Shown in pieces: positions 11,715-55,516 of a stretch of DNA of 64,000 nucleotides (positions within the stretch are counted from its first letter, which is position 1; each line of letters opens with the position of its first letter). Source of the DNA: a virus; IMG/VR virus record IMGVR_UViG_3300031759_000004, positions 1 to 64,000 of that record. One strand, 5' to 3'. The notes under the pieces were generated by a model. It did not search any database, was not told the origin of the DNA, and worked only from the letters and a program-made list of their open reading frames with translations. Both the position numbers and the translations under genes were made by a program.

Positions 11715-11791
11715 TGGCGCTCCAGGCCGGGATCGAACCGGCGACATGACCGCTTTAGAGGCGGCTCCTTTAACCACTCAGGCACTGGAGC
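11715..11791 (-). tRNA. tRNA with CUA anticodon (amber suppressor type)
   Basis: Full cloverleaf on the minus strand: acceptor GCTCCAG/CTGGAGC (7 of 7 pairs), a 3-bp D stem, anticodon stem GCCGC/GCGGT, loop CTCTAAA, 6-nt variable loop, T arm GCCGG-TTCGATC-CCGGC, discriminator G and encoded CCA. Loop positions 34-36 read CUA (complement of 11756-11758), which would decode UAG. Many genes here end in TAG, so the whole genome is not recoded. The amino acid cannot be read from sequence. Confidence 0.88.
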
Positions 11792-52646: not shown

Positions 52647-52998
52647 AGTTCTTTGAACCGGGCCGCAGTGAATCGGTTACCATGAAACGAACAACCAGCA
52701 AATCGCTGGGTGCGACAACCGGCATAACCCGTTAATTTGTCGCAGCGCTCGTCCAGGGCAACCTGGTAGGTAATGCCCAGTCAGCCAACCGCCGAAGCGA
52801 CGGTAATTGCAGGCGGAAATGGGCTGGGCTAAGCTATCAGAGCTTCGTGAGAAGTTTTGAGAGGGTAAAGACCCGAACCTCCGATTTGCAATTTTTGTCC
52901 GGTCTCAGGGGATTTTTAATGGGCTGGTGGTTGACGTGATGGCCGAAAGCCAGCGTCGCCAACCTTCGCAGTCGCAAGGCTGCCCAGCCCACCATGAG
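52647..52998 (+). ncRNA. Unidentified structured RNA, about 350 nt
   Basis: No credible gene. Many stems are visible: CCAGC/GCTGG (52696-52710), TGCGACA/TGTCGCA (52711-52744), CCAGG-GCAA-CCTGG (52753-52766), CTTC-GTGA-GAAG (52843-52854), TGGC-CGAAA-GCCA, and a long-range TGGGCTGGGC/GCCCAGCCCA pairing (about 52820 with 52982). GNRA-type tetraloops recur. It does not match the RNase P RNA, tmRNA or group I core motifs I looked for. It ends at the tRNA, so tRNA processing may set its 3' end. A 17-codon frame (ATG 52682) also lies here but is not convincing. Confidence 0.5.
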
Positions 52999-53072
52999 CG
53001 CGGGTTGGTGTACAGAGCACGACTGGCTCATAACCAGTAGGATGGTAGGTTCAACTCCTCCACCCGCAACCA
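52999..53072 (+). tRNA. tRNA-Met(CAU), initiator-like
   Basis: Acceptor CGCGGGT/ACCCGCA with a C1-A72 mismatch, the hallmark of bacterial initiator tRNA; D stem GTGT/GCAC with a very short loop (ACAGA); anticodon arm ACTGG-CTCATAA-CCAGT (CAU); T arm GTAGG-TTCAACT-CCTCC with one mismatch; discriminator A and encoded CCA. The three G-C pairs that initiators have in the anticodon stem are not fully present, and the D loop lacks GG, so it is atypical. It is followed at once by the Y RNA array. Confidence 0.8.
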
Positions 53073-53077
53073 ATTTT

Positions 53078-53138
53078 GTCGGGCCGAACGTCGAGGGTTA
53101 TCTTTGAATGAACACCCCTCGGCAATTACTTGTCCGAC
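53078..53138 (+). ncRNA. Y RNA 1 (Ro60-binding)
   Basis: 61 nt. Terminal stem GTCGGGC/GTCCGAC, then on the 5' strand CGAA and on the 3' strand ACTT: the Ro60 recognition element known from Y RNAs (5' GGNCCGA, 3' ACUUGNCC with a bulged C). An inner stem CGAGGG/CCCTCG carries the loop beginning TTATC. A TTTTAATTTT tail follows and may help termination or 3' processing. Confidence 0.82.
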
Positions 53139-53156
53139 TTTTAATTTTGACATTTT

Positions 53157-53217
53157 ATCGGGCCGAAGACCCAGGGTTATCTTTCCAAAATCACCCTGAG
53201 TCAAACACTTGTCCGAT
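53157..53217 (+). ncRNA. Y RNA 2 (Ro60-binding)
   Basis: 61 nt, same length as Y RNA 1. Terminal stem ATCGGGC/GTCCGAT, with the outer pair changed on both sides relative to Y RNA 1 (compensatory). CGAA/ACTT element conserved; inner stem CAGGGT/ACCCTG with loop starting TATC. Followed by TTTTAATTTT. Confidence 0.82.
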
Positions 53218-53227
53218 TTTTAATTTT

Positions 53228-53365
53228 AGCGGGCCGAAGCTGTTTGGTTATCACCCTAGCGCCTGTCGAGGTTCAAATCCTCGCCGAGGCTTTACGCCTC
53301 GGTGGTGTAACGGTAGCACAGCGCTCTCGGCGTAAGCCGGTCTCCGAACGCGACCCTTGCCCGCT
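53228..53365 (+). ncRNA. Y RNA 3, YrlA-type with tRNA-like module
   Basis: 138 nt. Terminal stem AGCGGGC/GCCCGCT with CGAA and CTT of the Ro60 element. Between them lies a circularly permuted tRNA fold (53254-53327): anticodon stem AGCGC/GCGCT, T arm CGAGG-TTCAAAT-CCTCG, acceptor stem CCGAGGC/GCCTCGG (7 of 7) closed by the loop TTTAC, and D arm GTGT-AACGGTA-GCAC with GG. A CGGC-GTAA-GCCG hairpin follows (53328-53339). This is the design of bacterial YrlA RNAs, whose tRNA-like domain mimics tRNA. The D arm resembles tRNA-Gly. Confidence 0.85.
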
Positions 53366-53370
53366 TTAAT

Positions 53371-53438
53371 TTCTACCGACGGTCGGCAGCGCCCTGCGCC
53401 TGGTGGCCACCAGGACATCGTGTGAACTGCGGTAGAAT
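53371..53438 (+). ncRNA. Hairpin between Y RNA 3 and the fourth Ro element
   Basis: Stem TTCTACC/GGTAGAA (53371-53377 with 53432-53438) encloses a GCAG/CTGC stem and the near-perfect CCTGGT-GGCC-ACCAGG hairpin. No Ro element inside. It may be a separate domain of the same transcript. Confidence 0.45.
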
Positions 53439-53444
53439 CTCTTT

Positions 53445-53467
53445 TCTGGGCCGACAACTTGCCCGGA
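53445..53467 (+). ncRNA. Minimal Ro60-binding hairpin
   Basis: TCTGGGC-CGA-CA-ACTT-GCCCGGA: 23 nt with the terminal stem, bulged C and CGA/ACTT element of the three Y RNAs, but almost no loop. It lies 74 bp before the Ro60 start codon. Ro60 bound here could sense its own level. Confidence 0.55.
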
Positions 53468-53489
53468 TTGGAATCAGTAACAACAGCCC

Positions 53490-53530
53490 GGGCATCGGCT
53501 GAGACGTACGGTAGTTGCGTGCGATTGCCC
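53490..53530 (+). promoter_or_regulatory. Hairpin just upstream of the Ro60 start codon
   Basis: GGGCA (53490-53494) pairs with TGCCC (53526-53530), 10 nt before ATG 53541. No Shine-Dalgarno is visible. A stem so close to the start could limit initiation. Confidence 0.3.
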
Positions 53531-53540
53531 TTTAACCAGT

Positions 53541-55238
53541 ATGGCGAAGATCAATGTTTCCCAGTTCGATACGCGGTCGGCCAAGCGCTCGCTCAAGCTG
53601 CCGGTCACTGAACCCCTCCCCGACCGTGGCCAGGTGCTCAACAGCACCGGCGGCTACACCTGGGCGGTAGACGACTGGAAGCGCCTGGAGCGCTTCCTGG
53701 TCCTGGGTTCGGAGGGCGGCACCTATTACGTAGACGAGCCGGACCTGACCAAGCAGAACCACGACGGCGTGCTGGCCTGTCTGAAGGCGGATGCCCGCCG
53801 GACGATCCAGACGGTGGTAGACATCAGCGTCCAGGGCCGGGCCTACCGCAACGAACCCGCGCTGTTTGTGCTCGCCCTGGCGGCGGCCTCGGACTGCCCG
53901 GAGACGCGCGCCCTGGCGCTGGAGGCGCTGCCGCAGGTGGCGCGTATCGGCACGCACCTGTACCACTTCATGGCGTACGTGACCGCCTTTCGCGGCACGG
54001 GCCGTGGCGTGCGCAACGCGATTGGCCGGTGGTTTACGTCCAAGGCTCCGGAAGAGCTGGCCCACCAGGTGGTCAAGTACCAGCAGCGCGACGGCTGGTC
54101 TGCTCGCGACATGCTGCGGCTGGCCCACCCCAAGGCGTATAATGATGCCCAGGAGGCGGTCTTCCGCTGGGTGATCGGCGGCCTGGCGGCCACCGGCCCC
54201 CGGTCCGTACAGCGCAAGCTGGCAGGCGTTAAGACCTACCCGGACGTGCGGCAACACCTGCCGGTGTTCATCGAGGCGTTCGAGCAGGCTAAGTTCGCGG
54301 ACGAAGCCGAGCTGGTCAAGCTGATCGCGGCGCACAAGCTGCCCCGCGAGGCCGTGCCGACGGACAAGCTTAATTCGGTGGCCGTATGGGAGGTCCTGCT
54401 CCAGAACATGCCGCTGACGGCCATGATTCGGAACCTGGGCAAGATGACGGCGGTGGGCCTGGTGCGCCCGCTGAGCCAGGCGGCCAAGCTGGTGACCGAG
54501 CGGCTCACCAACGCGGGCTACTTGCGCAAGTCGCGGATTCACCCGATGCAGGTCCTGGTGGCCTCCCGCGTCTACGGCGGCAACGCCGGACTGCGCGGCA
54601 AGCTGGCCTGGACGGCGGTGCCGTCGATCCTGTCGGCGCTGGACGAAGCGTTTTACGCGACGTTCCCGAACGTCCATCCCTGCGGCAAGCCGCTGCTGAT
54701 TGGCCTGGACGTTTCTGGCTCCATGAACAGCTCCATGGCCGGTGCCACGGCGCTGCGCGCCTGCGAGGCCACGGCGGCCCTGGCCCTGGTTCACGCCAGC
54801 GTCGAGCCGGAGTGTCACATCTTCGGCTTCGCGGACACGTTCCGGGAGCTGGGCATTCGCAAGGGCATGACCTTGGAGACGGCCATGCGGCAGGCCGCCG
54901 ACATGAACTTCGGTTCCACGGACATCAGCCTGTGCTTCGAGTACGCGCGGAAGGCCAAGCTCAAGGTGGGCGGCTTTATCTGCATGACGGATAACGAAGT
55001 CAACTGTGGCCGTCACCCGGCGCTGGCGCTGCGCGACTATCGGGCGAACTTCGTGCCGGATGCCCGCAGCGTCATGCTGGCGACGACGTCGACGCCGTTT
55101 ACGTGCAACGATCCGGAGGACGCGTACGGCTTGGACGTGGTGGGTTTCGACTCGTCGGTCCCGTCGGTCGTGGCGGACTTCATCCGGGGCGAAGCCGCCT
55201 CGGTGGTAGGAGACGCGGAAGTATACAGCCAGGACTAA
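53541..55238 (+). CDS. rsr: Ro60-family protein (TROVE domain plus vWA), Rsr
   Basis: 565 aa. The TROVE module has RFLVLGSEGGTYYVDEPDL near 51-69, ALFVLALAAA near 113, RIGTHLYHFMAYV near 137 and GRGVRNAIGRWF near 156. The C-terminal vWA domain has an intact MIDAS: DVSGSMNSS near 392, STDIS near 461 and MTDNE near 483. Ro60/Rsr is a ring-shaped protein of HEAT-like repeats that binds Y RNAs on its outer surface and misfolded RNA ends in its cavity; in bacteria it works with exoribonucleases and in RNA repair. The Y RNA array directly upstream is its expected partner. Length matches family (about 530-560). Confidence 0.93.
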   Translation: MAKINVSQFDTRSAKRSLKLPVTEPLPDRGQVLNSTGGYTWAVDDWKRLERFLVLGSEGGTYYVDEPDLTKQNHDGVLACLKADARRTIQTVVDISVQGRAYRNEPALFVLALAAASDCPETRALALEALPQVARIGTHLYHFMAYVTAFRGTGRGVRNAIGRWFTSKAPEELAHQVVKYQQRDGWSARDMLRLAHPKAYNDAQEAVFRWVIGGLAATGPRSVQRKLAGVKTYPDVRQHLPVFIEAFEQAKFADEAELVKLIAAHKLPREAVPTDKLNSVAVWEVLLQNMPLTAMIRNLGKMTAVGLVRPLSQAAKLVTERLTNAGYLRKSRIHPMQVLVASRVYGGNAGLRGKLAWTAVPSILSALDEAFYATFPNVHPCGKPLLIGLDVSGSMNSSMAGATALRACEATAALALVHASVEPECHIFGFADTFRELGIRKGMTLETAMRQAADMNFGSTDISLCFEYARKAKLKVGGFICMTDNEVNCGRHPALALRDYRANFVPDARSVMLATTSTPFTCNDPEDAYGLDVVGFDSSVPSVVADFIRGEAASVVGDAEVYSQD

Positions 55239-55516
55239 TGAGCGTCCGGGCTGACATTCTGAACGCGCAACGGAGGTGGTCAAGCACACCAGGCACCCAT
55301 CGTGTCTGGTGTGTTTTTAATTTGAAAACCGGCGAGCTGGTGCGGATCGTCAACTGGCGCACGGCGTACATGAACTACGCGCCGGACGACAGCTACGTGG
55401 CGCTTTCAGCTCGGGGTGGTAAGTTTCAACAGCGTTGGTTTTCCACCGGATTGGTCGCCAAGGCGGCGGAGTGCGCCGCCACTTTGGACCAACTGGAGGC
55501 TAGGGCAGCTTGCTGA
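55238..55516 (+). CDS. Hypothetical small protein
   Basis: 92 aa from ATG 55238, overlapping the rsr stop (TAATG). Sequence: MSVRADILNAQRRWSS, then a compact beta-like part (VWCVFNLKTGELVRIVNW). A strong terminator-like hairpin lies within codons about 17-28. Convergent overlap of 17 bp with the PAS gene. No family; if translated it is coupled to rsr. Confidence 0.5.
   Translation: MSVRADILNAQRRWSSTPGTHRVWCVFNLKTGELVRIVNWRTAYMNYAPDDSYVALSARGGKFQQRWFSTGLVAKAAECAATLDQLEARAAC
55285..55320 (+). terminator. Rho-independent terminator-like hairpin inside a coding frame
   Basis: Arms 55285-55296 and 55302-55313 pair over 12 positions (one G-U) with a 5-nt loop, followed by TTTTTAATTT. It should end the Ro60 transcript although it lies inside gene 55238-55516. 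Confidence 0.7.

What the first reader, a model, noticed from the sequence alone, without database searches (positions are those of the whole stretch)
52647..55238. A phage Ro60-Y RNA cassette with a tandem array of four Ro-binding RNAs
A TROVE/Ro60 gene is preceded, in the same orientation and behind one promoter, by four RNA units that share 5' GGGCCGA and 3' ACTTGYCC around a stem. The stems differ by compensatory changes: GTC/GAC, ATC/GAT, AGC/GCT. This is the Ro60 recognition element of Y RNAs. Ro60-Y RNA pairs are known in bacteria and in some phages. An array of several Y RNAs of different type, sharing a transcript with a tRNA and a 350-nt structured RNA, is unusual and may form a phage RNA quality-control or RNA-hijacking machine.
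Basis: partly seen in the sequence, partly recalled or inferred. Interest (0 to 1): 0.92.

Follow-up and report, generated by a model that had tools for sequence, protein, structure and literature searches.

The report
Phage Ro60 with four Y RNAs
A bacterial virus carries the gene for Ro60, a ring-shaped RNA-binding protein known as a human autoimmune antigen, together with four of its partner RNAs; this pairing is already known in bacteria and phages, but one of the partners is an unusually large RNA of a type I could not match to anything described.

Summary
The Ro60/Y RNA cassette is real, but the unit count needs correcting. The protein (53541-55238) is an intact TROVE + vWA Ro60. Upstream on the same strand lie two short Y RNAs (U1, U2: E = 3e-11 and 1e-13 with a covariance model built without them) and one YrlA-type Y RNA (U3) with a circularly permuted tRNA-like domain. 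It is a 23-nt leader hairpin carrying only the Ro60-binding core, also found, with compensatory changes, in the nearest relative. The Y 5' element occurs four times in the 129-kb genome, all here. Arrays are not unusual: many phage and bacterial Ro60 loci carry several Y RNAs, and jumbo phages have 11-12 same-strand Y-like 5' elements. Ro60 of this phage groups inside Verrucomicrobiota. New elements are the giant Y RNA, the leader site and, in relatives, Y RNAs copying 23S rRNA helix 69-71. Function is inferred: Ro60 with several RNA adapters. No binding or expression was tested.

The parts
52660..52900 (+). giant Y RNA (241 nt): Ro60-binding stem closing a ~200-nt multibranched insert without T-arm
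   Evidence: Y 5' element by pattern; MFE pairs the Y stem, z -3.9 and -4.85 for the longer stretch; 3' partner found in 11/20,000 shuffles; CGC...TTTTG strand variant recurs in relatives
52920..52991 (+). three-way-junction structured RNA of unknown identity between giant Y RNA and tRNA
   Evidence: fold z -4.1, 0/200 shuffles as good; no Rfam hit
52999..53072 (+). tRNA-Met (CAT), CCA encoded
   Evidence: ARAGORN, Rfam tRNA 43.9 bits
53081..53135 (+). short Y RNA (U1)
   Evidence: CM R1 built without window sequences: 48.5 bits, E 2.6e-11
53160..53214 (+). short Y RNA (U2)
   Evidence: CM R1: 56.7 bits, E 1.2e-13
53231..53362 (+). YrlA-type Y RNA (U3) with circularly permuted tRNA-like domain (T-arm, 7-bp acceptor stem closed by UUUAC, D-arm)
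   Evidence: pattern; ARAGORN calls a tRNA once the permutation is undone, 0/200 shuffles
   Evidence: 7-bp stem, loop CGACAACTT; same hairpin with 3 double-sided pair changes in L250/L251; R1 E 0.045
53541..55238 (+). Ro60 / Rsr protein (TROVE + vWA), 565 aa
   Evidence: Pfam; PDB 1yvp, 9nen, 2nvo; invariant MIDAS residues D390, S392, S394 and D484
55282..55316 (+). terminator-like hairpin after Ro60
   Evidence: 15-pair stem + T tract
53139..53147 (+). TTTTAATTT spacer motif after U1 (also 53218-53226 after U2, 55315-55323 after Ro60)
   Evidence: 3 matches in the window, 0.08 expected

Best explanation
This is a phage-borne Ro ribonucleoprotein module: one Ro60 ring protein made together with several alternative Y RNA partners, captured from a Verrucomicrobiota-like host. 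Each Y RNA presents the same Ro60-binding stem with a different far end. The short ones (U1, U2) probably cap, stabilise or gate the ring. The YrlA-type one (U3) presents a tRNA-like surface that can recruit host tRNA-binding enzymes or PNPase, or act as a tRNA decoy. The giant one presents a large module of unknown partner. A mini site in the Ro60 mRNA leader would let free Ro60 repress its own synthesis when Y RNAs are scarce. Shown here: the protein family, the Y stems and their covariation, the permuted tRNA fold by sequence, conservation across phages, and the leader hairpin in two viruses. Inferred: binding, co-transcription and processing, recruitment, autoregulation, and any benefit to infection (steering structured-RNA decay or blunting tRNA-targeting defence). 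Confidence below is for the identity of the module; for the adapter mechanism as a whole I would say 0.4.
For: Pfam and PDB matches. CM made only from other loci finds U1 and U2 at E 3e-11 and 1e-13. Covariation in 25 related Y RNAs: 89% of cells paired against 70% in shuffles, score 0.55 against 0.21 shuffled and 0.10-0.23 in slid controls. Of 86 CM matches around 63 viral Ro60 genes, 85 lie on the Ro60 strand. U3 is read as a tRNA after undoing the permutation. Giant Y stem. Leader hairpin with compensatory changes in the nearest relative. Tree places the phage Ro60 with Verrucomicrobiota, support 99. Tethering of PNPase by Y RNA and a competitive-inhibitor role for the YrlA tRNA-like domain come from the literature (PMC8394870; PMC7790460).
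Against: No expression, processing or binding data exist for this metagenomic phage. No Rfam Y RNA model hits. The giant Y RNA has no homologue found, so its stem has no covariation test of its own. The leader hairpin is known from only two virus lineages. No promoter was found. RtcB is absent from the record, so a link to RNA repair is not supported.
Confidence: 0.8

Rival explanations
1. The giant RNA is not a Y RNA: a phage structured ncRNA (tRNA-array leader, intron or ribozyme) happens to begin with a Y-like string, and only U1-U3 are Ro60 partners.
For: No homologue found; its 3' strand (TTTTTGTCC) departs from the ACTTGNCC consensus; R1 gives no full-length match there.
Against: The 5' element occurs four times in 129 kb, all in this cassette. 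The 9-bp upper helix plus outer helix form in the free fold and are rare in shuffles (11/20,000). CGC/CGT 5' strands go with an extra T in the 3' strand in other loci (Fisher p 2e-6, not corrected for relatedness), for example G001 28013. No Rfam family matches, introns included.
Confidence: 0.15
2. The module is passenger DNA from the host (rsr plus Y RNA genes) without a role in infection.
For: Ro60 groups inside Verrucomicrobiota, whose loci also hold several Y RNAs. Many phages carry random host genes.
Against: 417 confirmed stretches encoding Ro60 in viral contigs and 346 phage records, with intact MIDAS residues in the aligned set, Y RNAs retained on the Ro60 strand, and clustering with tRNA genes in several phages argue for selection.
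Confidence: 0.12
3. The main job is tRNA defence: the tRNA-like Y RNAs are decoys or competitive inhibitors for host anticodon nucleases and Ro60 only stabilises them.
For: Salmonella YrlA is not cut by the anticodon nuclease and was proposed as a competitive inhibitor (PMC7790460). Y RNAs sit beside a tRNA here and inside tRNA arrays in jumbo phages.
Against: Three of the four Y RNAs here, and many elsewhere, have no tRNA-like part.
Confidence: 0.3

Closest known systems
Bacterial Rsr with YrlA and other Y RNAs (Deinococcus, Salmonella, Mycobacterium; Chen et al. 2013, 2014, cited through PMC8394870)
   Same: Ro60 ring protein; neighbouring Y RNAs with the conserved stem; one Y RNA with a circularly permuted tRNA-like domain
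   Different: four Y RNAs, one with a 200-nt non-tRNA insert; leader hairpin; no rtcBA nearby
Ro-like proteins of actinobacteriophages and jumbo phages (e.g. Mycobacterium phage Sebata, Streptomyces phage Gilson, Sinorhizobium phage Phosso)
   Same: phage Ro60 gene; Gilson, Big4, Cashline and Myrna also show 2-5 unannotated Y-like elements beside it
   Different: 33-46% protein identity; different Y RNA sets
Ro60 loci of viral contigs L250/L251 (63% identity) and of Verrucomicrobiota
   Same: nearest Ro60 by sequence and tree; U3-like YrlA, short Y RNAs, and in L250/L251 the same leader hairpin
   Different: L250/L251 carry a tmRNA and many tRNAs nearby; no giant Y RNA seen
Nematode stem-bulge RNAs and vertebrate Y RNAs
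   Same: lower stem with bulged C; UUAUC at the 5' end of the loop, described for sbRNAs and vertebrate Y RNAs (PMC4450293, PMC4726728)
   Different: cellular eukaryotic RNAs; the cited review calls bacterial Y RNAs not homologous with vertebrate ones

Membership tests
Ro60 / Rsr protein | TROVE ring domain plus vWA domain | tested here: met
   full-length match to 1yvp and 2nvo
Ro60 / Rsr protein | MIDAS residues DxSxS, T, D | tested here: met
   D390, S392, S394, T460, T483, D484 invariant in the 15 aligned proteins
Ro60 / Rsr protein | Y-RNA-contacting residues K170, R174, H187 (numbering recalled) | tested here: met
   K179, R183, H196 align with KYKQR...LSH of 1yvp; that these are the contact residues is from memory
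Y RNA | Ro60-binding stem: 5' GGNYCGA with bulged C, 3' CTTGNCC, covarying upper stem | tested here: met
   U1, U2 by CM; covariation; U3 by pattern and stem pairing
Y RNA | same stem in the giant RNA | tested here: inconclusive
   stem present and rare by chance; 3' strand is the TTTTG variant; no homologues for a covariation test
Y RNA | match to a curated Rfam Y RNA model | tested here: not met
   none at gathering score; weak sbRNA hits only; bacterial Y RNAs may not be modelled in Rfam
Y RNA | bound by Ro60 in the cell | not testable with these tools
   needs pulldown or binding assay
YrlA | circularly permuted tRNA-like domain | tested here: met
   U3; the permutation of known YrlA is described in PMC11472068
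RYPER (Ro60-Y RNA-PNPase) | Y RNA tethers PNPase | not testable with these tools
   no assay; presence of PNPase in the phage was not searched
rtcBA RNA-repair operon | RtcB ligase encoded with rsr and Y RNAs | tested here: not met
   no RtcB in the 129-kb record

The most novel reading that the evidence does not exclude
Ro60 in phages and bacteria is a hub for an open-ended set of RNA adapters. Besides the known tRNA-mimic Y RNAs there are Y RNAs with other large modules: the 200-nt module here, and in Myxococcota a copy of 23S rRNA helix 69-71. The phage encodes a mini Ro60 site in its own leader that senses how much Y RNA is free.
Probability: 0.4. Interest if true: 0.75.

Novelty: new variant of a known kind. 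Interest (0 to 1): 0.52.

Why it matters
Bacterial Ro60 works with Y RNAs whose far end decides which enzyme or substrate is brought to the ring, but only the tRNA-like end is well described. A phage that carries four Y RNAs of three kinds, one of them large and of unknown kind, gives a compact natural set with which to ask what the adapters do, and why viruses carry them. The UUAUC box that nematode and vertebrate Y RNAs share, and that sbRNAs need for their replication activity (PMC4726728), also sits at the same place in most phage and bacterial Y RNAs found here, which makes the question of a common origin testable.

Tried and rejected
Single-protein search of viral contigs with the window Ro60: no relative; alignment-based search worked. 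The 350-nt RNA as tmRNA, RNase P RNA, group I intron or other Rfam family: no match even at E 10. The giant insert as an rRNA mimic: a 16-nt match to E. coli 23S at E 0.04 and a Verrucomicrobiota rRNA comparison no better than shuffles, so rejected. Giant insert homologues: none in phages, plasmids or viral contigs. Leader hairpin as a general phage feature: pattern hits elsewhere lack Ro60, except the L250 relative. RtcB in the same genome: none. TAG recoding suggested by a CTA tRNA: TAG is a normal stop here (29 of 117 ORFs). Further Y RNAs elsewhere in the 129 kb: none. The 23S-like Y RNA in viral contigs: none. The key paper on bacterial Y RNAs (Chen et al. 2014) could not be read, so priority of the side findings is unchecked.

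Full report
WHAT IS THERE. The 565-aa protein at 53541-55238 is a Ro60 orthologue: TROVE E 7e-37 and Ro60 vWA E 7e-41; the Xenopus, RO60 and Deinococcus Rsr structures match over nearly the full length (1yvp 2e-107, 9nen 8e-106, 2nvo 7e-98). MIDAS residues are invariant among the 15 aligned viral proteins. Upstream, on the same strand, the 5' element GGGYCG-N(9-13)-GTTAYC occurs at 52660, 53081, 53160 and 53231, and nowhere else in the 129,045-base record. These are four Y RNAs.

U1 (53081-53135) and U2 (53160-53214) are short Y RNAs. A covariance model built from 25 Y RNAs of other viruses and bacteria, without window sequences, finds them at E 2.6e-11 and 1.2e-13 over 64 kb. The upper stems differ letter by letter but stay paired: over 33 Y RNAs own arms score 8.1 and swapped arms 4.4 +/- 0.2; on the model alignment 89% of cells pair against 70% in shuffles, and every upper-stem pair has double-sided changes.

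U3 (53231-53362) is YrlA-like. Inside the Y stem come a T-arm (CGAGG-TTCAAAT-CCTCG), a 7-bp acceptor stem closed by UUUAC, and a D-arm, that is, a tRNA cut at the anticodon and closed at the acceptor. ARAGORN does not see it as it stands, but calls a tRNA once the permutation is undone with a dummy anticodon loop; 0 of 200 shuffles do so. The circular permutation between tRNA and bacterial Y RNA is known (PMC11472068).

Its 5' strand GGGCCGCA-GTGAATCGG-TTACC and 3' strand CCGATTTGC-AA-TTTTTGTCC form a 9-bp upper and a 7-bp outer helix in the free fold (z -3.9 for 254 nt). Given the 5' strand, such a partner arises in 11 of 20,000 shuffles. The strand variant (C at position 7 with an extra T before TTG) recurs in other loci, for instance in the sister phage at G001 28013. 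The insert of about 200 nt has no T-arm, no Rfam match and no homologue found. A further three-way-junction RNA (52920-52991, z -4.1) and a tRNA-Met (52999-53072) lie between it and U1.

The nearest relative L250/L251 has CGCAGGC/GCCTGCG with loop CGCCAACTT shortly before its Ro60 gene: three pairs changed on both sides, one on one side, none broken. It was not seen at other Ro60 loci. It holds just the Ro60-binding core of a Y RNA, so a feedback site in the mRNA leader is the natural guess.

HOW COMMON IT IS. Scanning viral contigs for the RNA motif alone brought in Ro60 loci again and again, and scanning for Ro60 alone brought in the motif. Around 63 viral Ro60 genes the model gives 86 matches, 85 on the Ro60 strand. 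By a strict unit finder, of 53 viral loci with any unit 32 have two or more and 7 have four or more; of 64 bacterial loci 44 and 15 (loci partly redundant). Jumbo phages G006 and G007 hold 12-14 matches to the 5' element each, 11-12 of them on one strand, several inside arrays of 40-50 tRNA genes. Cultured actinophages show unannotated Y-like elements beside Ro60. So the array is ordinary for this system; the giant Y RNA and the leader hairpin are what stand out.

ORIGIN. In a tree of 153 Ro60 proteins the window sequence joins L251 (100) and L252 (99), and these three viruses fall with 21 cellular rows, nearly all Verrucomicrobiota (99). Host transfer, and a Verrucomicrobiota host, are inferences from this. 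Other genes of the window (baseplate wedge, DNA polymerase, NAD-dependent ligase, DnaB helicase) mark a tailed phage with a contractile-type baseplate.

HOW IT MAY WORK. From the literature, bacterial Y RNA binds Rsr with its basal stem and tethers PNPase with its effector domain, steering decay of structured RNA (PMC8394870); the YrlA tRNA-like domain was also proposed as a competitive inhibitor of an anticodon nuclease (PMC7790460). The phage set fits one ring with several adapters: short Y RNAs as caps or gates, U3 as tRNA mimic, the giant RNA as a different adapter, and the leader hairpin as feedback. Anatomy and covariation are shown; binding, processing, recruitment and benefit are inferred.

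SIDE FINDINGS IN RELATIVES. (a) Y RNAs whose insert copies 23S rRNA nt 1908-1937 (helix 69 and the start of 70/71): 27-30 nt at 93-97% identity, E 3e-6 to 2e-10, beside Ro60 in Myxococcota; 6 of 35 genomes of that order hold the pattern. (b) tRNA genes in normal order whose anticodon arm is replaced by a Y stem closed with a small loop, several ending in CCA: 8 viral and 7 bacterial cases by strict criteria, all on the Ro60 strand; more by looser criteria. I could not check whether either is already described, because the main papers are not held.

VERDICT. A real Ro60-Y RNA module in a phage: known in kind, with one new variant RNA and one putative leader site, and good leads outside the window.

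Noticed in passing
L387 5840-6006 +, L391 2911-3076 +, L545, L547, L548: Y RNAs beside Ro60 in Myxococcota carry a near-exact copy of 23S rRNA helix 69-71 (E. coli 23S 1908-1937), a possible new class of rRNA-mimic Y RNA.
   Followed up: partly
L125 3507-3628 +, L128 6987 +, L282 3532 and 3671 +, L283 5738 +, L384 3770 +, L395 7057 +, L050 minus strand ~1190-1068: tRNA genes in normal order in which the anticodon arm is replaced by a Y RNA stem closed by a small loop (GCAA, UUUU, GCUCGC), some with encoded CCA: the reverse permutation of YrlA.
   Followed up: partly
G006 (L531, L532), G007 (L533): Jumbo phage contigs of about 460 kb with 11-12 same-strand Y-like 5' elements, several inside arrays of 40-50 tRNA genes.
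   Followed up: partly
window 53098-53102, 53177-53181, 53248-53252 and many loci: The UUAUC box at the 5' end of the loop, described for nematode sbRNAs and vertebrate Y RNAs, is conserved at the same place in phage and bacterial Y RNAs.
   Followed up: partly
L542 1077-1144 (Microbacterium phage Big4): Annotated tRNA-Ser(cga) coincides with the 5' half of a Y RNA; probably a misannotation.
   Followed up: no
window 11715-11791 -: tRNA with a CTA anticodon (called tRNA-Pyl), a possible amber suppressor; TAG is nevertheless a common stop in this phage.
   Followed up: partly
window 52999-53072 +: The tRNA-Met has a C1-A72 mismatch as in initiator tRNAs but lacks the three G-C pairs in the anticodon stem.
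   Followed up: no
L250 2078-2503: A phage-encoded tmRNA lies 1.5 kb upstream of Ro60 in the nearest relative.
   Followed up: no
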